From Letharia columbiana (Eukaryota; Ascomycota; Lecanoromycetes; Lecanorales; Parmeliaceae): a stretch of 64,000 bases of DNA. Position numbers and translations under genes: made by a program. Position 1 is the first letter of the stretch; the number at the start of each line of letters is the position of its first letter. Of the stretch, positions 899 to 39,643 are shown in pieces. The notes under the pieces are model-generated. The model saw only the letters and a list, made by a program, of their open reading frames with translations. It did not search any database and had not been told where the DNA came from. The stretch spans positions 175,001 to 239,000 of the forward strand of contig NW_023501100.1 in the NCBI RefSeq assembly GCF_014066305.1, written 5' to 3'.

Positions 899-2014
899 CT
901 AGTCCGTCAGGATGACAATCTTCGCAGCCGCAGTGCTCTCATCCATCTCCGTGTGCGCCTGAACGATCTCATCAAGCTTGAACGTCTTGATAGGAATCTG
1001 CATACTGCCATCCTTGATCGCGCGTGCCACGGTATTTATCGGCCCTGCGCTGAAAGGATCCGCAAAGCTCGCAAAAGTCGTCAAAAACACCCCACTTGGA
1101 ATGAGGAAATTCGGATCGAGCTCGGGAAGCACCCATTTATCCCCTAAGATACCGCACGAGCACACGATACCGTTCTTCTTCGTGGCCTTCAGCGAGTCCG
1201 CCAGCGTCGCCACGCCCACGAGCTCGAGCACCTTGTCGAATCCCTCGGGGAACCGCTTCCGCGCCTCTTCTGCGATGGTTCCGCTGTCGACAAGGACGTC
1301 ATCCGCGCCACTCCGAAGAAGCAGATCTGCTCTGCTCTCATTACGAGTGGTCGAGACGACAAAAGCGCCATGGTGCTTCCCAATGGCCGCGGCGGCCATG
1401 CCCACAGACGACGATCCCCCTCTCACCAGCAACTTCTCCCCTTTCTTCAACAGCAACGACGAGAATAGTGCTCCCCATGCTGTATGCACCATTTCCGGCA
1501 CCGCGCCCAAGATGTCCCAGCCGATTCCATCCGCATCCACCACCTGAACCTGCTTCGCAGACACACATGTGTATTCCGCATAGCCGCCATCGAAATTTCG
1601 CCCCATTCCCCCAACAATGGTGGCGACAATGTCACCTTCCTTGAACTCTCCTCCTGGCGCAGCGGCGACGATGCCAGTGGCTTCAATGCCGAGAATGCGG
1701 GGGAACGCTACTCCGGGGGAGGCGCCTTTGCGGGTGAACATTTCGGATCGGTTGAGGCCGAATGCTTTGACGCGGATTAGGACCCAGCCTTTATCGGGGG
1801 TGGGGATGGGACGGTCCTCGAGGATGAGGGCACTAGGTCCACCGGGCTTGTGGACGACCGCCGCGCGCATTGTCTTGGGGGTGGTTTGCGTCATGGTGAG
1901 TGCGGATGGAAAGGTGGAGGTGTTGAAAATTGTCGGAGAGATTGAGAGAAGTGGTTTGGCTTGATGCCTGAGTCGTGGAAGTATTTTGAGAATACTGTTG
2001 CCTCGGAAGAGCAT
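899..2014 (-). CDS. Zinc-less MDR quinone oxidoreductase-like protein
   Basis: A single-exon gene of 371 residues in the medium-chain dehydrogenase/reductase superfamily, quinone-oxidoreductase branch. These enzymes use NADPH to reduce quinones or enones. The GroES-like half begins at MRAAVVHKPGG and contains a GIEATGIV segment and an EGDIVATIVGG turn. The Rossmann half has the nucleotide-binding stretch LLVRGGSSSVGMAAAAIGK, followed by SGADDVLVDS and the FDKVLELVG strand. I see no cluster of structural-zinc cysteines, which fits the zinc-less branch. I chose the ATG at 2014. An in-frame ATG at 1894 (MTQTTPKTMRAAV) is also possible, but the extra 40 residues are rich in Arg, Ser and Leu and poor in acids, like a mitochondrial presequence. 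The exact substrate cannot be told. Confidence 0.85.
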   Translation of the reverse strand: MLFRGNSILKILPRLRHQAKPLLSISPTIFNTSTFPSALTMTQTTPKTMRAAVVHKPGGPSALILEDRPIPTPDKGWVLIRVKAFGLNRSEMFTRKGASPGVAFPRILGIEATGIVAAAPGGEFKEGDIVATIVGGMGRNFDGGYAEYTCVSAKQVQVVDADGIGWDILGAVPEMVHTAWGALFSSLLLKKGEKLLVRGGSSSVGMAAAAIGKHHGAFVVSTTRNESRADLLLRSGADDVLVDSGTIAEEARKRFPEGFDKVLELVGVATLADSLKATKKNGIVCSCGILGDKWVLPELDPNFLIPSGVFLTTFASFADPFSAGPINTVARAIKDGSMQIPIKTFKLDEIVQAHTEMDESTAAAKIVILTD

Positions 2015-3515
2015 GTACAAAATTGAGGATCTGGGATAGTAGGTTGAACATGGATAGGGTTCAGCTTTGATGGGAAAGCTTACAGAGCACGAAGCGAAGG
2101 ATCGTTATGCCTGCATCATGACGTGCATCGTACATGCAAAGTAAGTGGGGGCTGCGACCAATCAATGTACAGACTTATATGCCATCAATGTTCGAGCGGC
2201 CCATTCCAAACTCTTCGACCTACATCACTGCTTGTCCATCAATCAATCAGGGCGCCTGTCAGATGTCATGAGCTGAAGGCGTTGTTTTGCAATTCGGAGG
2301 TGCGGTGATGAAAGGACCGCAACTTTGCATCGGCGTGAGGGCTGAAGCATCCTGTCCTTCGCATGAGCGGATCAACGATGTATCTGACGATCTGTCACAT
2401 CTTGATGTCAGCATTGAGCTTTGACGTACAGTTCACGACCCTAGGCTTACGACGTGGTGCAACGTGAAGGTTGGGGTGCGGAAGAGACCAACGATTATTA
2501 GACTGAGCTCGAAGGCGGTGGCGCTGCTAACGGAGCTGTAGTTGAAGAAAACGATGGGTTTCCCTCCTGTTGGCATGCAATAGGGCGTTCCACAGGTACT
2601 TTCCGTCTTCGAGATAAAGACGATCGGCTGTCCAGCTTGGGACTCTTGTTTCACGTTTCTTTGTTCGTAGTTCCTGCCAGGATGGCATGTTGAGCTCTCG
2701 GGAAACATGGTCATACACTGGTGACTCCAAAGACTGGCTCGAAAGAGCACGATCAGATATAGATGATGTAACTGCATAGATCAATTATATGTTCATGTTA
2801 TTATTGCCACCTACCCGTGCGTATATTATACTTCGAATAACATCGTACGATAGGAGGATATTGCAGGGTATGAGAGTATGGTAGAGTGAATAATCATCGT
2901 AGGCTATGAGAGTACTGCAGGAGATGTCTACTCTGGCTTCCCTGGCTCACGAAGCACTGAACTGGAAGCTGGAAGCTGTGTGCTAGGCAAAGGGGCTTGT
3001 AAGCTTCTGGGCTCCGCGAGACCCTTTGTTTTTGAGGTCACGAATTTCAGTGATTCAGCCGCTACAGGCACTATCATTAAATGCGGACACGCCTTTTTTA
3101 CGAGCACATTTGGAGGAGCAAGTGTTCAAATCACATTATTGTCTGCTAGAAGAGTTTAGAATGTTTCAAAGAACGCTACATTCATTATCTGGCGGATTCG
3201 AAGTCGATGGCTTTCACCTCCGTGCAAAGCTTCGCTTTCAAGACTCGGGCTTGGATTGACGGACGGTGATGAGTATGAAGATATCTTGAAACGAGGACGG
3301 AGAGCTAATCCAGCCGAAAATGGGAACATCTAGTAGGAAACGACCGCTGCGTGGTAGCAAATGCGTATGAATGAATGTCCATCCTATTCTGTCCTTGTTG
3401 CGTTTCTCGAACTGCTCGACATTATTATGTAGCCCACTCAAATTCAGGAGACGGGAGTATGAAGCTGTTTACTTACCGGCCTCTTCCCCTCTCACTCAAC
3501 AGCGCCATGATTGAG
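2015..3515. other. Intergenic, no gene recognised
   Basis: About 1.5 kb between the reductase gene and the 3' end of the peptide-precursor gene. Only short frames without recognisable features occur (for example near 2433-2784 minus and 3026-3259 plus). It holds the shared 5' flank of the reductase gene and the 3' flank of the precursor gene. Confidence 0.45.
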
Positions 3516-4330
3516 CTAATGCTTGTCGGCCCCATAGCGACCGCTGATCTCGTCTTCACGCTTGACTTTGGGGTCCCCATAGCGACCGCTGATCTCGTCC
3601 TCACGCTTGATTTTGGGGTCCCCATAGCGACCACTGATCTCGTTCTCACGCTTGATTTTGGGGTCCCCATAGCGACCGCTGATCTCGTCTTCACGCTTGA
3701 TTTTGGGGTCCCCATAGCGACCACTGATCTCGTCCTCACGCTTGATTTTGGGGTCCCCATAGCGACCACTGATCTCGTCCTCACGCTTGATTTTGGGGTC
3801 CCCATAGCGACCGCTGATCTCGTCTTCACGCTTGATTTTGGGGTCCCCATAGCGACCACTGATCTCGTCCTCACGCTTGATTTTGGGGTCCCCATAGCGA
3901 CCGCTGATCTCGTCTTCACGCTTGATTTTGGGGTCCCCATAGCGACCACTGATCTCGTCCTCACGCTTGATTTTGGGGTCCCCATAGCGACACTGATCTC
4001 GTCTTCACGCTTGATTTTGGGGTCCCCATGCACCACTGATCTCGTCTCTTTTTTCCCCATAGCGACCGCTGATCTCGTCTTCACGCTTGATTTTGGGGTC
4101 CCCATAGCGACCGCTGATCTCGTCTTCACGCTTTTGTGGTGTCATGACTTTGTTGACTATTTGTGTGCTCAATCAGTCAATCTCTCCTCCAAGCAGTAAG
4201 TAGCCGAGACCAAGAGGGAAGACAAACTTAAGAACGTAAGAGCGTATAAGATCAACTTACTGGGGAGCAAATACGATGGTGCAGCAGACACCAATGCTAA
4301 GGCCAAAGCCATAACCAAAGCGATCTTCAT
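3516..4330 (-). CDS. Kex2-processed repeat peptide precursor (RiPP-like), frame interrupted
   Basis: Read on the minus strand. Exon 1 (4330-4261) encodes a clear signal peptide, MKIALVMALALALVSA-AP. An intron with donor GTAAGT and acceptor ATAG (4260-4157) follows, then exon 2 (4156-3516) ending at TAG 3518-3516. Exon 2 carries 14 copies of a 45-bp unit translated as KREDEISGRYGDPKI. Each copy starts with a Lys-Arg site for the Golgi protease Kex2 and has one Tyr in GRYGD. Differences between copies are mostly silent in this frame (GAA/GAG and AGC/AGT), with one Asp to Asn and one Ile to Val. Fungal ustiloxin, phomopsin and asperipin precursors share this plan, so I infer a ribosomal peptide precursor. 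The third and fourth units carry a 2-bp and a 1-bp deletion; a TGA at 4007-4005 lies between them. As read, only about 73 residues and two normal cores are made. The gene is either decaying or misassembled. The two UstYa genes downstream support the role. Confidence 0.78.
3531..4134. repeat. 45-bp coding minisatellite, 14 units
   Basis: A tandem array with a 45-bp period, each unit beginning cccatagcgacc on the plus strand. Thirteen units are close to full length or full length and one (about 4028-4057) is shortened. Two main variants often alternate (gctgatctcgtctt and actgatctcgtcct), suggesting that 90-bp pairs were duplicated. One unit near 3990 is 44 bp and the shortened one lacks a further 2 bp, which shifts the frame of the precursor gene. 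The array is the body of the peptide precursor rather than selfish satellite DNA. Confidence 0.92.
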
Positions 4331-5561: not shown

Positions 5562-5643
5562 GAGGGTCGGGGACAAAAGTCTCTGCCGACTTTCTCCCGC
5601 AGCCCCCACCAAAAGTCGGCAGAGACTTTTGTCCTCGACCCTC
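5562..5643. repeat. Near-perfect 32-bp inverted repeat (hairpin)
   Basis: Arms at about 5562-5593 and 5612-5643 are reverse complements with a single mismatch, separated by an 18-bp loop. The core of the arm is gacaaaagtctctgccgac. It lies at the very edge of the AT-rich block but is itself GC-rich and untouched by mutation. It could be a small fold-back element or the end of the inserted transposon. Confidence 0.85.
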
Positions 5644-5683
5644 GTCCCACCTCAGGGACTTAATGCTTTGTCATATGGAATAT

Positions 5684-5775
5684 AAAATATAGTTAATAAG
5701 TATATAAAAGTAATAGACTATAGAATCTATCTATATAAATAATAAAGCTATATATTAAATCGATTAGAAAAACGT
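5684..5775. repeat. Left copy of border direct repeat
   Basis: This stretch matches 8944-9036 in the same orientation. Most differences are C/T or G/A transitions, with T or A in this copy, as expected if the left copy was more heavily hit by RIP. A shared core is tataaaagtaatag. Confidence 0.65.
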
Positions 5776-6177
5776 ATATTCGAGAAAAATAATTTATTCT
5801 AATACTTTTATTTAATAACAAATTTAGGTCTATAAATCAAATTTATAGAAAGTTATTAATTTTTAAATCTCATTTCGAAATTAAATTCGACTCTCGAAGA
5901 GTGAAAATATTTTAATTTAAGATTTACGTAGAACTATAAGCTCGAATTTAATAATTTCTAGATTATTTAAAAGCGTAATTTACGTTCTATAATTTCAAAA
6001 AAAGAGTTAAAAAATTCTAATAGAAATAAGAGAAGTTATATTAATAATAAGTTTATAGAGAGTTAATTAACTTTAGATTAATTTTATTTTTTTTAATAAG
6101 AAGTTAATTTTGATATCTATTATAGTTTATCTCTATTAATAATTCTTTTATTTTTATAATTTATAGAATTTTTATTA

Positions 6178-6252
6178 ATTTTACGAATTTTACGAATTTT
6201 ACGAATTTTACGAATTTTACGAATTTTACGATTTTACGATTTTACGATTTTT
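6178..6252. repeat. Short tandem repeat, ttttacgaa
   Basis: About six copies of the 9-bp unit ttttacgaa followed by about three copies of the 8-bp derivative ttttacga, ending at a small GC patch (ggcgaggg). It lies inside the AT-rich block. Confidence 0.85.
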
Positions 6253-6716
6253 TGGCGAGGGAGATTTATAGATTGAAATCGAGGACGTAGCGAAATAGTT
6301 TTAAATTTTATTAAAATTATTATTACTCGACTATTTAAGCTTATATAAAAGAGTATTCTTAATAAAGTAAATAAATTTTTAATAAACGATATTTAAATTC
6401 TCTATCTTTAAATATTTATAAGACTAAATTTAAAAACTCTATTTTTATTTGAAAGCTTATATTTTAAAATTAAATAATATATATCTAATTAGAAGCTTAA
6501 GACTATTCGGCTATCGAGCGAACTTTAATAAGTAATATTTAAATTTCTTACGCTTTAATAATTATAAGACTAAATTTAGAAATTCGTTTTTCTTCTAAAA
6601 GCTTATATTTCGTTCTATAATTTAAAGAAAATTTTAAAATTTTAATAGAAAATAATTTTTTTTATATGTTAATAATATATATAATTAAATTTATTTTTTT
6701 AATAAGAGAGCTTAAT

Positions 6717-7110
6717 AGAGCTAGTAAGTTAACTTAGTCGATTTAATTAAAAAGCGTAGCGAATTTAAATTTATAATTAGCTATATATATAAATTTAAGA
6801 TTTTATAATTTAGCTTTATCTTTTTCTATTATACGAGTAAAGATCTATAAATTAAATTTATAATCGTTTTTTTAATTAAGACTATCGAGTAAATTTAATA
6901 AGCGATCTTTAATAAGCGATATTTAAATATCTTATCTTTTAATAATTATAAGACTAAATTTCGAAATTCTTAAAGCGTTTAAAAGCGTAATCTACGCTCT
7001 ATAATTTAAAAAAAAATCTTAAAATTTTAATAGAAAATAGTAAAGTTATTAAAGGATTAAAAGTAGAGTAAGAGATTTTAATAATTACGAACGCTAATTT
7101 ATTTACTCGC
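6717..7110. repeat. Left arm of large inverted repeat in the AT-rich block
   Basis: Nearly 400 bp that match the reverse complement of about 7810-8240. Shared landmarks include atcgagtaaatttaataagc and aattacgaacgctaattta. The spacer of about 700 bp contains the less degraded island at 7340-7485. Similar units also recur further right (about 8241-8330 and 8600-8900), so this is a nest of related fragments rather than one clean pair. Confidence 0.7.
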
Positions 7111-7339
7111 GATAACTTAGTTAATTTAATTAAAAAGCGTAGTAATTCTAAATTTATAATTAGCTATATATATAAATTTAAGATTTTCTAACTTAATTCT
7201 ATCTTATTCTTTTATATATACTAATATATTAATTAAAAAATATATACTTATATTAGACTCGAAGAGCCTTAGAGTTATATAGTAATGTGAAATTAGAAAG
7301 ATAGATATATTCGTATATCGATCTGATAGTAAAACTAAT

Positions 7340-7485
7340 TCTTAAGGAAGCAAAGGAAACTCGGGGGGATCGCTTGCTTGAGCTTATCCGCCAAGACTCC
7401 GCCAAGACTTCGCTAAGCGTATATCAGGCGTACGTAAGTTAAGTAATCTAGGGTCCTCTCACTTAGAACTCTTAAGCCTCTTTTC
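7340..7485. other. GC-normal island inside the AT-rich block
   Basis: About 145 bp of ordinary base composition in the middle of the RIP-degraded sequence, with a small direct repeat (ccgccaagact twice). It encodes nothing recognisable. It may be a single-copy insertion that arrived after the mutation of its surroundings or was never repeated enough to be hit. Confidence 0.6.
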
Positions 7486-7809
7486 TAACAACTTATTTTT
7501 TAATTAAGATCGAGTAAATTTAATAAGTAAACTTTTAATAATAAATATTTGAATTCTTTGCCTTAAAACATTTATAGAATTAAATTTAATATTTATTTTT
7601 TCTCTAAAAGCCTATAATACGTTCTATAATTTAAAAAAAAATCTTAAAAATTTAATAGAAAATTAAAAACTTATTTTAAAATTAAGTAATATATATCTAT
7701 TTTTTAATTAGAATTATCGAGCGAACTTTAATAAGCGAACTTTAGTAAATAATATTTAAGCTCCTTGCTTCTTAATAATAATAAGATTAAAGTTTATAAT
7801 TCTTTTAAT

Positions 7810-8240
7810 TAGATATCGCGAGTAAATAAATTAGCGTTCGTAATTATTAAAATCTCTTTCTCTACTTTTAATTATTTAATAACTTTACTATCTTCTATTA
7901 AAATTTAGTAATTATTTTTTTAAATTATAGATTATAATTTGCACTTTTTAAATTAAAAAATTTAAAAATTTAGTCTTATAATTCTTTAAAGATAAGGAAT
8001 TCAAATATCGCTTATTAAAGATCGCTTATTAAATTTACTCGATAGCTCTAATTTAAAAAAAATAGATTATAAATTTAATTTATAGATCTAAACTCGTTAT
8101 ATATAAAAAAAAAATTAGTATATTAGTATATATATTAGAATAAGATAGAGCTAAGTTTAAAAATCTTAAATTTATATATATAGTTAATTATAAATCTAAG
8201 TTTATTACGCTCTTTAATTAGATCGACTAATTTATTATAA
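7810..8240. repeat. Right arm of large inverted repeat in the AT-rich block
   Basis: The partner of 6717-7110 in reverse orientation. A further direct copy of part of it starts near 8241, so parts of the unit occur at least three times in this block. Confidence 0.7.
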
Positions 8241-8943
8241 GTAAATAAATTAGTATTCGTAATTATTAAAAATCTCTTTCTCTACTTTTAATCCTTTAAT
8301 AACTTTACTATTTTCTATTAAAATTTTAAGATTTTTTTTTAAAATTATAGCCCGAAACTTACGTCTTTTAATAATTTTTTTTTTAAATTTAATTCTATAA
8401 TTATTAAAGCGTAAGAAATTTAAATATTACTTATTAAAGTTCGCTCGACAGCTCTAATTAAAAAATAGATGTATATTATTTAATTTTAAAATAACTTTTT
8501 TATTTTTTATTTAAATTTCGAGTTTTTTCTCTTAAATTATAGAATATAATATAAGCTTTTAAATAGAAAAAGAATTATTAAATTTAATCTTATAGATATT
8601 TAAAGATAGAAAATTTATAAATCGCTTATTAAAAGTTCGCTTATTAAAGTTCGCTCGATAGCTCTAATTAAAAAATAGATATATATTATTTAATTTTAGA
8701 ATAACTTTTTTATTTTCTATTAAAATTTTAAGATTTTTCTTTTAAATTATAGAACGTAATATAAGCTTTTAAATAAAAAAAGAATCTTAAAATTTAATCT
8801 TATAATTCTTTAAAGGTAAGGAATTCAAATATCGCTTATTAAAGATCGCTTATTAAAGATCGCTTATCAAATTTACTCGACAGCTCTAATTAAAAAAAAC
8901 GATTATGAATTTAATTTATAAATCTTTACTCGTATAATATAAT

Positions 8944-9036
8944 AAAGTATATAGTTAACAGCTATATAAAAGTAATAGATTATAGAATCTACTTAAATAG
9001 AACGGGAAGTTATGTACTAACTCGATTAGGCAAGCG
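8944..9036. repeat. Right copy of border direct repeat
   Basis: The partner of 5684-5775 in the same orientation. This copy keeps more C and G and continues into normal single-copy sequence on its right. Together the pair brackets the AT-rich block like terminal direct repeats or a duplicated border. Confidence 0.65.
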
Positions 9037-10048: not shown

Positions 10049-11183
10049 ATGCCTTTGCAACCTGATGGGAAAAGCTTGGTCCGCGAAATGTCTGACTCCT
10101 CCTCCTCCTCATTTCCGCTTCTCAAGGCAAAGAGCACATCTGGAGACTCTGATTACAACGAGGAGACCTTGAATGATGCAGAAGCCAAAGCTCCCAGCCA
10201 AAGCCACTTCCGGTCTTGGGCCCGGCGGCATCAAGGTGGCTGGATTGTTTTGCATTTGTGCATCATCATGGCTTACACGACTTTCTATGTCCTGGCACTT
10301 TGTGGAGTACTTGCCTCAAGTGTGGATTGCGGCTTCAAGCATAGCGAAGTCGGTCCCCAGGATCTTTTACTCAGTCTGTAGCGACCCCCTCTTGACCCCT
10401 GTGCAGCTGCTGATATATGATCTAGCTCCAATGCACGAAGCTGTCAAGCACCAGGTGCGAACTGTCCGCAACTCAGTAAACGCAACCAGCAAATACAAGG
10501 GACCTCCCTCTCCTGAAGTGGATCGTGCCTGGCGCGATCTATTCAACAGTAAGTTTACATGATTTCCCATGTCCTCAAAGATGGTGAAAGGCAGAAGCTG
10601 AATGGCTAGACAACAATCTTCGAGTCAGCGCGGAGGACATGAAATTGTTGAATCGCACCTCAGTCATGTTCAATGATGGATCGGGAGACTTCTTAGCAAC
10701 TCCCGACGTGAGTAGATTTATCCATGGTGTTGTCCAATGCTCGCTAACGAGTGACAGACTTATCACCAACTACACTGCTTATGGTATATCTTTCAGAATG
10801 TACATTCAGAGTTCTACACGGTCAATCCGACTATCGTGTCGGTCAGTGATCATGTCGACCACTGTATCGACAGTATTCGAATAGTGAGTATCGTGTACTT
10901 TAAAGAGGCCAAACCGCGCCGATTGACTCGTCGTCCACAGTTCATTCAATGCCACGCAACTACGAGCGTTCAAACTTATTCGTGGATACCCAATATGCGT
11001 ATTCCTTTTCCTAATTTCGAGGTTCCAAATGTGTGTGTTGAATGGGGAACGTATGACAAATGGGTAAAACGCCACTCGGTCGATGAATATGAGCCGGGTC
11101 TGCTCATACACCCAACTCTCGGTCCATCTTTTCCAGATGGTAAACCAAAGCATGAGTTTCATCATGTTCCTCACTCAGAGTAA
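10049..11183 (+). CDS. UstYa-family (DUF3328) oxidative cyclase-like protein 1
   Basis: A five-exon gene reconstructed from frame and splice sites. The first intron is uncertain: 10320-10374 or 10307-10406 both keep frame. Introns two to four are clear: 10549-10594, 10708-10757 (CTAAC branch) and 10884-10940. The product is about 294-308 residues. One membrane helix lies near residues 64-88, after an acidic cytoplasmic tail. The family's conserved segment GPPSPEVDRAWRDLF follows. Two HxxHC motifs are present: HQLHC (10764-10778) and HVDHC (10851-10865). UstYa proteins are thought to bind copper and carry out oxidative cyclisation of ustiloxin-type ribosomal peptides in the secretory pathway. 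The second motif is slightly off consensus (IFIQCHATTS rather than YLRQxxMCxAD). Together with the second UstYa gene and the repeat precursor it suggests one peptide pathway. The exact reaction is unknown. Confidence 0.85.
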
Positions 11184-11844: not shown

Positions 11845-12641
11845 ATGTGGGCACCGTTTACCGATTGGTCTTACAGACCGATGAGCACTGGTTCAGACGA
11901 AGAGTTGAGCTCTGAGAAGCTTCCCGCACTCACACTCGTCGAGCGGACGCAGAAGCGAACCATTCTCGTCGCGCTCGCAAGCCTCCTGTTCACCACGCTC
12001 TTCGGCTTCGGCGTCGGTTTCGCAGCTGGGGCGTGGAAACCTGAAGGATCCTCACACGAGCATGGTCTCCTTCGTTGGTCCTCCCCAACCCTCAAGGTAG
12101 GATATGGCTAACACCTACAGAGCCACCGGGAACCGTGGTGAGGGAGTTCGTATACAACGAAACATTCACACACGGCTTCGATGATCCAGTAGCAGGACCA
12201 GCATGGCACGAATTGGATCCCAATGGCGGCAAGATCCTCCACCCGTCCTTGGCTAAGAATGAGACAGTCATTAGTGCATTTCACCAGGTATGCTAGCCGG
12301 AAGTTTCGATACAGTCTCTACGGTCAGATTCAGATGGATAGACTGATCGAGCTACTCAGATTCACTGCCTCTATGTCCTGCGCCTCGCCTTCTACCACGC
12401 CCTCGACGGCACCTTCGACTACGACAGTAAAAACTCAGGCGATTGGCATGCGGGACACTGTTTTGACTATCTTCGCCAATCCATCATGTGCGCTGCGGAC
12501 ACGAATTTGGAGCACTCGAATGCGGAGGGGCACCATATGTGGAACAGAACGCACTATTGTCGCGATTGGGAGTCCGTGATCGCCTTCGAGGTTGAATGGG
12601 CTCCCAATAGCCCACGCAATTCCAAGAGAACCGGCTTGTGA
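11845..12641 (+). CDS. UstYa-family (DUF3328) oxidative cyclase-like protein 2
   Basis: A three-exon gene giving about 222 residues. The first intron ends at 12120 after a CTAAC branch site at 12108-12112; its donor is uncertain (12065 or 12074, both phase 1). The second intron, 12288-12359, begins GTATGC and is certain. A single membrane helix spans about residues 39-62. Both UstYa signatures are canonical: HQIHC followed by LYVLR, split by the second intron, and HAGHC at 12447-12461 followed by FDYLRQSIMCAAD. The protein ends soon after a conserved HYCRDWESV segment, as is normal for the family. It probably works in the lumen of the secretory pathway on a Kex2-released peptide, alone or with the first UstYa protein. 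The ATG at 11845 was chosen; an in-frame ATG at 11881 is possible. Confidence 0.88.
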
Positions 12642-12812: not shown

Positions 12813-13974
12813 TCAACCAGTCCTGCCATTTCTCGTCTTCCTCGCAACCCTAACCATGTCGCCGCCCGTTGAAGACTTCTCCTTTCTCAGGGGGCAACAC
12901 TGCTCCAATGCCTCACAAGTCTCCTCTAGGTAAATCACAAGGAGGTGACATTCAAATTGTATGAACTGGCCAAAACCAGCGGTTGCTGATTGATCCGCAA
13001 CCATTCTCCCTCTACCAACCAACCCAATATCAACTTTAATCGTCATCCGTATCTCCCTCCAATTGTTGTCATCTGTGACCATAGCAATTGGAACATTTCC
13101 CAAGGCCCAAATAACAGCTTCAAATGTCAGCCAAGGGCATTGTCCGCGTAGTGGTGTCGCTGGATCAATAACCTGAAGCGAGATGTTGTAGTCACCCCTA
13201 TCGCTGAAGGTGCGTACGACCTGTCTCCTTGGGTATGGAGCCATTGCAACTAGGCTGTGAAGATGGTCATGAAAACGTCTGCTGAAGAGAGCGGTCGCCC
13301 AGCCATGTCGATTTCGGCTGTGAGACGACCGTTGTGGTAGATGGTGCTCAATGCTGAGCTGCTTGTGACATTTGTAGCTGGAATGCCTAGCAAGGTTGAA
13401 TGGGTGTTTGGTAGGGCAGTGAGTAGGCTGTTGGTGTCGGCGTTATTGTTATTGCTGCTGCTCAATATGGAATTATCTTTCTTGATGAAACGAATCTGAC
13501 CGACCACAGATCCTTCCGATGGAGTTTAAACGTCAATTCGCGGTAAAAGCTATTAGATAACATGTACCATGTTGCACTGTAGAGTCACCAAATTGCATAC
13601 TTGATAAGTATGTTGCTTTTCGGTTCCAAAGTCAGTCCGTCAATGAAAAGTGTGAACCAAGGATGATCGAAAGAACGAGGTACGGTCTCCGCGTCAAAAT
13701 CCTCCACTGCGAGGATATGAAGGCCTTGTAGCACTTTGAAGAGGACTTGAGTCTTTGCGAAGCCTTGATTAGGACCGAGTCGGGCCCCAGGGCTACTTGG
13801 TTGGATAGTGAAGCTGTTGGGGACAAATGCACCTAGGATAGTATTGTTGAGAGTGCTTCGGGAATCGGTGCTATCCGGAGAGCTGGTCAGATTCGCAAGG
13901 GAAGCTGAGCTTGCGGTAGCCCGCAAGATCAGTTGCGAGAGAAGTATCAAGAGACATTGAGAGGAAAGTTGCAT
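12813..13974 (-). pseudogene. Secreted protein of unknown function, frameshifted
   Basis: Read on the minus strand, the first exon starts at 13974 with a good signal peptide (MQLSSQCLLILLSQLILRATAS) and N-glycosylation sites (NLT, NNT). It continues to an intron just below 13587. The rest occurs in pieces in different frames: one ends in a segment like FKLHRKDL, the next begins VVGQIRFIKK, and the last begins LVAMAPYPRRQVV. Each change of frame fits loss of a single base, near 13508 and near 13251. The conserved-looking C-terminal part contains WREIRMTIKV and LTFEAVIWALGNVP, which I recall from uncharacterised secreted fungal proteins, but no function is known. It is probably a recent pseudogene, unless the assembly has base errors here. 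Confidence 0.6.
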
Positions 13975-14680
13975 GACGAACTTCTCCCATGAAAGGTTTT
14001 GCGAAGAAAGCGGGCTTTTGTTTCAAGACTTGAAAATCTAAGACTCATAATGGGGAACACACCCATAGATATTGGTGCGGAGCCGCTCGCGAATCGCCTC
14101 TTTCTTGTGCACCAGCGCAATTACGATGTAACAATTACTCTGCGCGTTGAATTTTTAGGGCAAAGCGCCAATATCGTACGAGCAGATACTCTTCTTGTAG
14201 AATATGTGTTGTAACGCACGGGTTACCGCTCATTGGGAGTGAAAAAAGATGCCGAACATGGTCTGTTGATGTCTAAGGATGTCTTGCTGTAGAGGCGATA
14301 CTCGTAGTGGCGTGTCAACATCCGGCTCCCACTTCTTCCAATCATCTTGTACTTTCAGTCATTCGAAGTATTAGTACTGTGTATCGTATGGGATCTCAGG
14401 GAAGTCTGAAGTAATCAATTCGTTCTGAAAATTCTCCATTCTGTTTGAGATACGACAAATCTCTTGTATCTTAATTATATTGATCAAGAGCACGAACGAG
14501 ATCGCAAACGAGAGTTGGATGTAGGCAGCATGAGAGAAAGGTGTTCATTATAATACATTCAGATGAGAATTCTCTGTTGACTTGTCTGGCGCCAAGCCAA
14601 CGCCACCAACGCCCACTCGCCTCACTCTCCCAAGCAGCCATCCACCATCACCTCCACCACCTTTCTCTCTACCGCTCAAC
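13975..14680. other. Intergenic, divergent promoter region
   Basis: About 700 bp between the start of the minus-strand secreted-protein relic and the start of SRP19. No gene is recognised. The segment just before 14681 is a C/T-rich leader (caccaccacc and ctctctct runs), typical of a fungal housekeeping gene. Confidence 0.45.
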
Positions 14681-38699: not shown

Positions 38700-39643
38700 A
38701 TGGCCATGCAAACCGGCCCCGGTGGAAAAGTCGACCGCCAAACCACCACCCCCTTCCACCTCAAGCTCTTCTACCGCACCGGCTCCTTCCACAGGTAAAT
38801 CTCCCTCCCCCCCCCCCCCAACCCCCCCCCCCAAACTAAACACCCCCACCACGCAGCCTAACCGACTTCCCCACCGCCACCCCCACCGGCCTGCCCCCGC
38901 TGCCCCCCCACCTCCAAATCTACACCTGGCCCACCTGCACCCTGCGCGAACTGTCCCACCTGCTCGTCACCGCGCTGCCCACCCTGCTCCCGTCGCCCGC
39001 GATCGGCACCCGCCTCGCCTACCGGCTCGTGTACCCGGACACGCACAACAACAGCAACAACAACAACAACGCGACGACGACGACGACGATGGCGCCGGGG
39101 CGGTATCTGAGCAAAGAGCTCGGGGACGTGGTGGTGGGGGATGAAGGCGCGGAAGAAGGGCCAGGGCGGGGAAGGAGGGAGGAAGAAAGAGAAGGAGGAG
39201 GAGGAGGAGGGGGAGAAGGGGGGGAGAAAGTGGTACGGGAGGGCGTGATGGCCGGACGACTGGGCGGGGAGCCGGACAAGACGCTGCAGGAGGCGCGGTT
39301 CGTGATTGGGGATTTCATCTCGTGCGCCATCTTCCCGCCGGGCGCGGACGGGAGCGTGGCGCCGGGCCACAACAGCGCGGGGCGGGGCCGGGGGGGCCGG
39401 GGGGAGTTTGGGGGAGAGGGGGCGGGGAGTTTCGGGGGAGGGGGAGGGGGGGTTCGGCGGGGCGGGGAGGGTGGGGGATGGCGGGTTGCCGCAGGGGGAG
39501 TGGAGGAGGGGGGAGAGGGTGCCGGAGGGGAGGGGGGGGTATGGGAGGGGGAGGGGGAGGGGGGGGTATTGATTGAGTGTGCAGGGGTTTTGTGCGGGAG
39601 GGTGGAGAACGGTGTTGTTGTGCAGACTTCTCGGCTGCGGTGA
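38700..39643 (+). CDS. SAP18: SAP18-family histone deacetylase complex subunit
   Basis: Two exons (38700-38794 and 38857-39643; intron GTAAAT...GCAG within a poly-C tract) give 293 residues. SAP18 is a ubiquitin-fold protein of the Sin3-HDAC complex and the exon-junction ASAP complex. Conserved blocks: TTPFHLKLFYRTGSFH, LPPHLQIYTWPTCTLRELSHLL, GTRLAYRLVYPD, GRYLSKELGDVVVG and DKTLQEARFVIGDFISCAIFPP. Two inserts are unusual: an Asn/Thr repeat with a Gly/Glu-rich loop in the middle, and a Gly-rich C-terminal tail of about 80 residues. The G-rich coding strand is extremely purine-biased there. The ATG lies just before MAMQTGPGGKVDRQ. Confidence 0.9.

What the first reader, a model, noticed from the sequence alone, without database searches (positions are those of the whole stretch)
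3516..4330. Unrecognised Kex2-type repeat precursor for a ribosomal peptide
The minus strand has a clean signal peptide, one intron, and 14 copies of a unit starting with Lys-Arg and carrying one Tyr (KREDEISGRYGDPKI). The copy-to-copy differences are GAA/GAG and AGC/AGT, silent only in this frame. They change residues in the two other overlapping frames, so selection acts on this peptide. This plan matches dikaritin-type precursors, but I do not know this core.
Basis: partly seen in the sequence, partly recalled or inferred. Interest (0 to 1): 0.92.

Follow-up and report, generated by a model that had tools for sequence, protein, structure and literature searches.

The report
Broken-frame repeat precursor of fungal peptide
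In an unnamed fungus, a gene beside two peptide-modifying enzyme genes encodes repeats of a short tyrosine-containing peptide, a known kind of fungal peptide precursor with a new sequence, but its reading frame is interrupted after the third repeat in this assembly.

Summary
The array is real. On the minus strand a leader exon (4330-4261), a good 104-nt intron and 14 tandem units of mostly 45 nt lead into KREDEISGRYGDPKI. (1) The 14 units are not one reading frame: units 2, 3 and 4 are 33, 43 and 44 nt, and the leader's frame ends at TGA 4007-4005 after unit 3; units 5-14 are open again in that frame. (2) The copy differences do not show selection: of four variable sites in ten compared copies, two are silent and two change residues in the KR frame, and the split is also 2:2 in both other open frames. 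I read it as a dikaritin-like Kex2-processed repeat precursor with a probably undescribed core, either misassembled or truncated in this strain. It is a new member of a large known kind.

The parts
4261..4330 (-). exon 1: start codon and signal-peptide-like leader MKIALVMALALALVSAAPSYLLP
   Evidence: no signal-peptide predictor was at hand, judged by eye
4157..4260 (-). 104-nt intron, GTAAGT...ACAAATAG, brings the leader into the KR frame
   Evidence: no transcript of this gene was seen
4056..4133 (-). units 1 and 2 in the leader's frame; unit 2 is shortened to 33 nt
3969..4055 (-). units 3 and 4, 43 and 44 nt: frame broken, in-frame TGA at 4007-4005
3519..3968 (-). units 5-14, open in the leader's frame, ending GRYGADKH; stop 3518-3516
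5701..9000 (.). AT-rich block with RIP-type dinucleotide ratios between the precursor and the UstYa pair (edges from 100-base steps)
   Evidence: 5600-8950 has 19% GC, TA/AT 1.21, (CA+TG)/(AC+GT) 0.27; the five other window stretches measured give 0.60-0.69 and 1.21-1.29
10049..11183 (+). UstYa gene 1, five exons, 304 aa, HQLHC and HVDHC motifs
   Evidence: PF11807 E 8.6e-39; 298 of 304 columns identical to P0001, against which the intron ends were set
11845..12641 (+). UstYa gene 2, three exons, 225 aa, HQIHC and GHCFDYLRQ motifs
   Evidence: PF11807 E 1.1e-18 (C-terminal half); 222 of 225 identical to P0007, against which one intron end was set
899..2014 (-). zinc-binding dehydrogenase; possible but unproven cluster member
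   Evidence: PF00107, PF08240

Best explanation
This is the precursor gene of a small dikaritin-like peptide cluster. The leader sends the protein into the secretory pathway; the kexin (Kex2) cuts after each Lys-Arg, releasing copies of EDEISGRYGDPKI; the acidic EDEIS part is probably a spacer and the Tyr-bearing part (within RYGDPKI) the core; the two UstYa proteins probably oxidise or crosslink it at the Tyr. Shown here: leader frame, intron sequence, KR spacing, two intact UstYa genes, a kexin-type P-domain in the genome. Inferred: transcription, cleavage, crosslinking, which residues form the core, and bioactivity. As assembled the frame stops after three units, so this copy would release about one full-length and one shortened peptide. 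I think an assembly error in a 600-bp array of near-identical units is somewhat more likely than a real truncation, but neither is shown.
For: Leader plus strong intron joins the KR frame. Two UstYa genes in the window, Pfam E 8.6e-39 and 1.1e-18, 98-99% identical to P0001 and P0007, which sit on 1,110- and 3,024-nt contigs and lack the introns, so they look like cDNA of a close relative (inference). Of about 17 UstYa loci in this genome (my grouping of 35 exon matches, 34 over the cut-off; 18 stretches fetched around the others), at least 4 have a KR-repeat array in the stretch held: C17 KRQDSDAV[HY]DH.., C33 KREEPDGDLYEYK, C70 KRADADEAWGGGTE, and this one. Each has a leader-like start in another frame upstream, and an acidic run after KR followed by Tyr or Trp (His in one C17 unit). 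Kexin P-domain: 1 match on C4.
Against: The KR frame is the only one of the three open frames that the odd units close: the sense +1 frame (210 aa) and the antisense frame (274 aa) run through. Codon usage does not separate the KR frame (0.24-0.28 bits per codon) from the antisense frame (0.30-0.31). Copy variation shows no preference for the KR frame. No homologue of units 5-14 among about 5.8 billion proteins, though only proteins of about 82-262 aa sharing exact words could be found; no second copy in the genome. No tyrosinase or S41 peptidase match on this contig: 3 tyrosinase matches on C38 and C62, 1 weak S41 match on C130. The start codon lies 5.7 kb from UstYa 1, whereas the three other arrays lie 0.8-2.1 kb from the nearest UstYa exon match. 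Leader-to-repeat introns at the three other loci are weaker than this one, so they are weak support for the shared gene plan.
Confidence: 0.78

Rival explanations
1. The frame break is real: in this strain the precursor is truncated or a decaying pseudogene, in a cluster already split by an AT-rich block. (This concerns the state of the gene and can hold together with the best explanation of its kind.)
For: Three length-variant units side by side and an in-frame TGA; AT-rich RIP-type block between precursor and enzymes; the three other KR arrays found in this genome each read open in one frame, so the assembly does not always break such arrays; the five hypothetical extra introns of 30-200 nt that would bypass the break all have poor splice words.
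Against: Both UstYa genes are intact and 98-99% like P0001 and P0007; units 5-14 are all back in the same frame and nearly identical; a 600-bp near-identical array is a common place for assembly error (general knowledge).
Confidence: 0.4
2. Linear secreted repeat peptide (hormone or pheromone type), not modified by the UstYa proteins, which serve another pathway.
For: 78% of the listed repeat precursors have no UstYa neighbour (from the 22% in PMC7329392, abstract); UstYa proteins also occur in non-RiPP clusters (PMC12048977, section 22).
Against: Two UstYa genes within 8 kb and one Tyr in nearly every unit; in PMC7329392 (section 7) 65.6% of repeated sequences with UstYa neighbours hold Tyr against 38.2% without, and with three exceptions the pheromone-type precursors lack UstYa neighbours (abstract).
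Confidence: 0.1
3. A non-coding minisatellite, or a gene read in one of the two other open frames.
For: With a 45-nt unit, any frame without a stop in the unit stays open, here three of six; the other two survive the odd units; codon usage and copy variation do not decide.
Against: Only the KR frame is joined to a leader by a strong intron and only it resembles the three sister arrays beside UstYa genes.
Confidence: 0.1

Closest known systems
Dikaritins: ustiloxin (UstA), phomopsin (PhomA), asperipin-2a (AprA)
   Same: leader peptide, KR-flanked tandem repeats with Tyr, DUF3328/UstYa genes nearby; the asperipin-2a cluster is given as four genes with one UstYa homologue and no tyrosinase among them (PMC6514808, passages seen)
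   Different: core differs (YAIG and FYYTGY in those passages; here within RYGDPKI); no tyrosinase or S41 peptidase match on the contig; frame interrupted in this assembly; no product known
Kex2-processed repeat proteins (KEPs) as surveyed in PMC7329392 (abstract, sections 7 and 13, and part 1 of 2 of section 6 seen) and PMC6339444 (abstract and section 16 seen)
   Same: signal-like leader and repeats of 13 aa between KR sites; 22% of surveyed KEPs have DUF3328 neighbours
   Different: as assembled, the leader's frame holds only two KR-to-KR segments
Venturia inaequalis dikaritin clusters (PMC9632046, passages seen)
   Same: nine clusters in one genome, recognised there too by pairing a leader-plus-repeat precursor with a DUF3328 gene; here about 17 UstYa loci, at least 4 with arrays
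   Different: precursor expression during infection is reported there; species, expression and lifestyle are unknown here

Membership tests
KEP (definition of PMC7329392, section 13) | signal peptide | tested here: inconclusive
   leader looks right by eye; SignalP not available
KEP (definition of PMC7329392, section 13) | at least 3 tandem repeats of at least 8 aa between Kex2 sites, none over 100 aa | tested here: inconclusive
   DNA array of 14 units; units 5-14 meet it; the leader's frame as assembled holds 2 such segments plus an unflanked tail
Dikaritin | UstYa/DUF3328 gene(s) in the cluster | tested here: met
   two
Dikaritin | Tyr in the repeated unit | tested here: met
   one Tyr in 13 of 14 units read around the anchor; unit 3 reads GAWG in the leader's frame
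Dikaritin (ustiloxin/phomopsin branch) | tyrosinase in the cluster | tested here: not met
   3 matches in the genome, none on C65; 5,000 of 10,000 bases of one flank stretch read N. PMC7329392 section 7: 341 tyrosinase genes near 7,878 KEPs, so its absence is common
Dikaritin (ustiloxin/phomopsin branch) | S41 peptidase in the cluster | tested here: not met
   1 weak match in the genome, on C130; same caveat on N
Dikaritin | ether-crosslinked cyclic product | not testable with these tools
   needs mass spectrometry
Kex2 processing | kexin in the genome | tested here: met
   P_proprotein, 1 match covering 58 of 86 positions, E 1.6e-16

The most novel reading that the evidence does not exclude
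An undescribed cyclic peptide with a core inside RYGDPKI (for example a YGDPKI ring closed from Tyr onto a later residue), made by a pair of UstYa proteins without a clustered tyrosinase or S41 peptidase, from an array whose neighbouring units differ in length between strains so that copy number and frame set the yield.
Probability: 0.25. Interest if true: 0.5.

Novelty: new member of a known kind. Interest (0 to 1): 0.28.

Why it matters
If expressed, it names the sequence and the two candidate enzymes for an undescribed ribosomal peptide, and a two-UstYa set without a clustered tyrosinase would help to show what UstYa proteins do alone. As a gene type it adds one to thousands. The correction matters more: silent-site arguments on tandem arrays must use all variable sites and account for copies made by duplication.

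Tried and rejected
Rejected: selection shown by silent sites (2 of 4 in each of three open frames). Rejected as weak: a hidden second intron rescuing the frame (introns of 30-200 nt between 4110 and 3940; five combinations, donors GTGAAG twice, GTCGCT, GTGGTG, GTGCAT, acceptors GACGAG four times and GATCAG once). Undecided: codon usage (7 of 8 genes entered the codon table, the eighth was set in the wrong frame and left out of the table, though its stop-free pieces entered the printed quantiles). Led nowhere: protein search of units 5-14; solved structures for UstYa 1 (0 matches); paper search for four core strings (0 papers). The script asks for at least three KR and two similar flanking words in an open stretch of 40 aa or more, so arrays of another form would be missed. 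The first gene models of UstYa 1 and 2 had wrong intron ends; they were the queries and were corrected. One search printed those alignments and then stopped with an error (wrong file name); its composition part was run again.

Full report
Setting. The window is part of a 52.2-Mb genome in 161 contigs (C65:175001-239000). It is fungal: the UstYa 1 query found 6 proteins, four of them named (Neodothiora, Mollisia, Bisporella, Cladonia), the UstYa 2 query 38, the named ones ascomycetes such as Xylaria, Hypoxylon, Nemania and Echria, and the window holds HET and fungal rhodopsin domains. The species was not determined.

The observation. The minus strand has the leader exon, a GTAAGT...TAG intron and 14 units as described, and the array is the highest-scoring tandem repeat in the window. 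But units 2, 3 and 4 measure 33, 43 and 44 nt. The leader's frame reads two units, a third altered unit, and then TGA at 4007-4005: a 73-aa product with three KR sites. Units 5-14 are open in the same frame as units 1-2. 8 of 14 units read exactly as quoted.

The selection argument. I compared ten full-length copies (1, 5-13; units 2, 3, 4 and 14 dropped). There are four variable sites, all transitions. In the KR frame two are silent (GAA/GAG, AGC/AGT) and two are not (D>N, I>V). In the sense +1 frame and in the open antisense frame the same four sites split two and two the other way round. The silent fraction of all possible transitions is 0.31 to 0.40 over the six frames. The two frequent sites travel together in 9 of 10 copies, as expected from duplication of longer blocks. 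So the array says nothing about which frame is selected. Codon usage does not separate the KR frame from the antisense frame, and the broken units close only the KR frame of the three.

Why I still favour the KR frame. It alone is joined to a leader by a strong intron. Two UstYa genes lie at 10049-11183 and 11845-12641. Several of their intron ends were reset to fit P0001 and P0007, after which they match end to end (298 of 304 and 222 of 225 columns). Because those proteins lack the introns and come from contigs of 1,110 and 3,024 nt, I infer cDNA from a close relative, so the enzymes are probably transcribed there. Across the genome, 35 UstYa exon matches (34 over the cut-off) fall in about 17 loci by my grouping. 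I held 18 stretches around the others plus the window. A script for repeated KR-flanked words listed arrays at three others: C17 (L007), C33 (L015) and C70 (L023), 0.8, 2.1 and 1.9 kb from the nearest UstYa exon match, each with a leader-like start in a different frame upstream, though their candidate introns are weaker than the one here. All four share an acidic run after KR followed by Tyr or Trp in nearly every unit. By the published average of 5.25 such genes per ascomycete strain (PMC7329392, abstract), four in under 0.3 Mb of 52 Mb would be a strong enrichment; that is a rough inference, since that survey worked on annotated proteins with SignalP.

Surroundings. Between precursor and UstYa genes lies an AT-rich block, about 5701-9000, with RIP-type ratios; without it the distance would be about 2.4 kb, near the sister loci. 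To the right, SRP19, a glycosyltransferase and a DEAD-box helicase mark ordinary genes from 14.5 kb on; two ORFs between (12813-13442 and 13585-14022, minus) have no Pfam match. To the left is a dehydrogenase at 899-2014. No tyrosinase or S41 peptidase match is on this contig, but 5,000 bases of one flank stretch read N, so missing cluster genes cannot be excluded.

What it is. A Kex2-processed repeat precursor with UstYa partners is the dikaritin plan. PMC7329392 lists 7,878 such precursors, 1,758 with DUF3328 neighbours, 2,560 without homologues (abstract and section 7), so a precursor without relatives is common. The four core strings tried are in no paper of the 5.39 million searched, and units 5-14 found no homologue in the protein collection within its length limits, so the core is probably undescribed; the surveys' supplementary tables could not be read. 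I therefore call it a new member of a known kind, with an unsettled frame.

The break. An assembly error is plausible in a 600-bp array of near-identical units; a real truncation is plausible too, since the three sister arrays read open. No evidence here decides, and I have put no base back.

Noticed in passing
L007:5344-5880 (+), C17: KR-repeat array KRQDSDAV[HY]DHDHGERLDSDAIYDHA beside UstYa genes, open in one frame, leader-like MHFQKLLLVLPALAASGILAAP upstream.
   Followed up: partly
L015:7571-8011 (+), C33: KR-repeat array with unit KREEPDGDLYEYK, two Tyr per unit, 2.1 kb from a UstYa exon match.
   Followed up: partly
L023:2318-2884 (-), C70: KR-repeat array with unit KRADADEAWGGGTE, Trp and no Tyr, 1.9 kb from a UstYa exon match.
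   Followed up: partly
G000:C62:42204-47719: Tyrosinase matches within about 5 kb of a UstYa gene, a possible ustiloxin-type cluster; the script listed no KR array in the stretches held.
   Followed up: no
window 3375-4199 (+): A 274-aa antisense ORF spans the array and is not broken by the odd units; probably a by-product of the 45-nt period.
   Followed up: partly
P0008: A 146-aa fragment 82% identical to part of UstYa 2 sits on a 32,044-nt contig of another source, perhaps genomic; its neighbourhood could show a related precursor.
   Followed up: no
L003:1001-5000: The left flank is AT-rich too (GC 0.36 falling to 0.20 per kb), so the cluster lies between two such stretches.
   Followed up: no
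window 38808-39569: C-rich and G-rich simple repeats.
   Followed up: no
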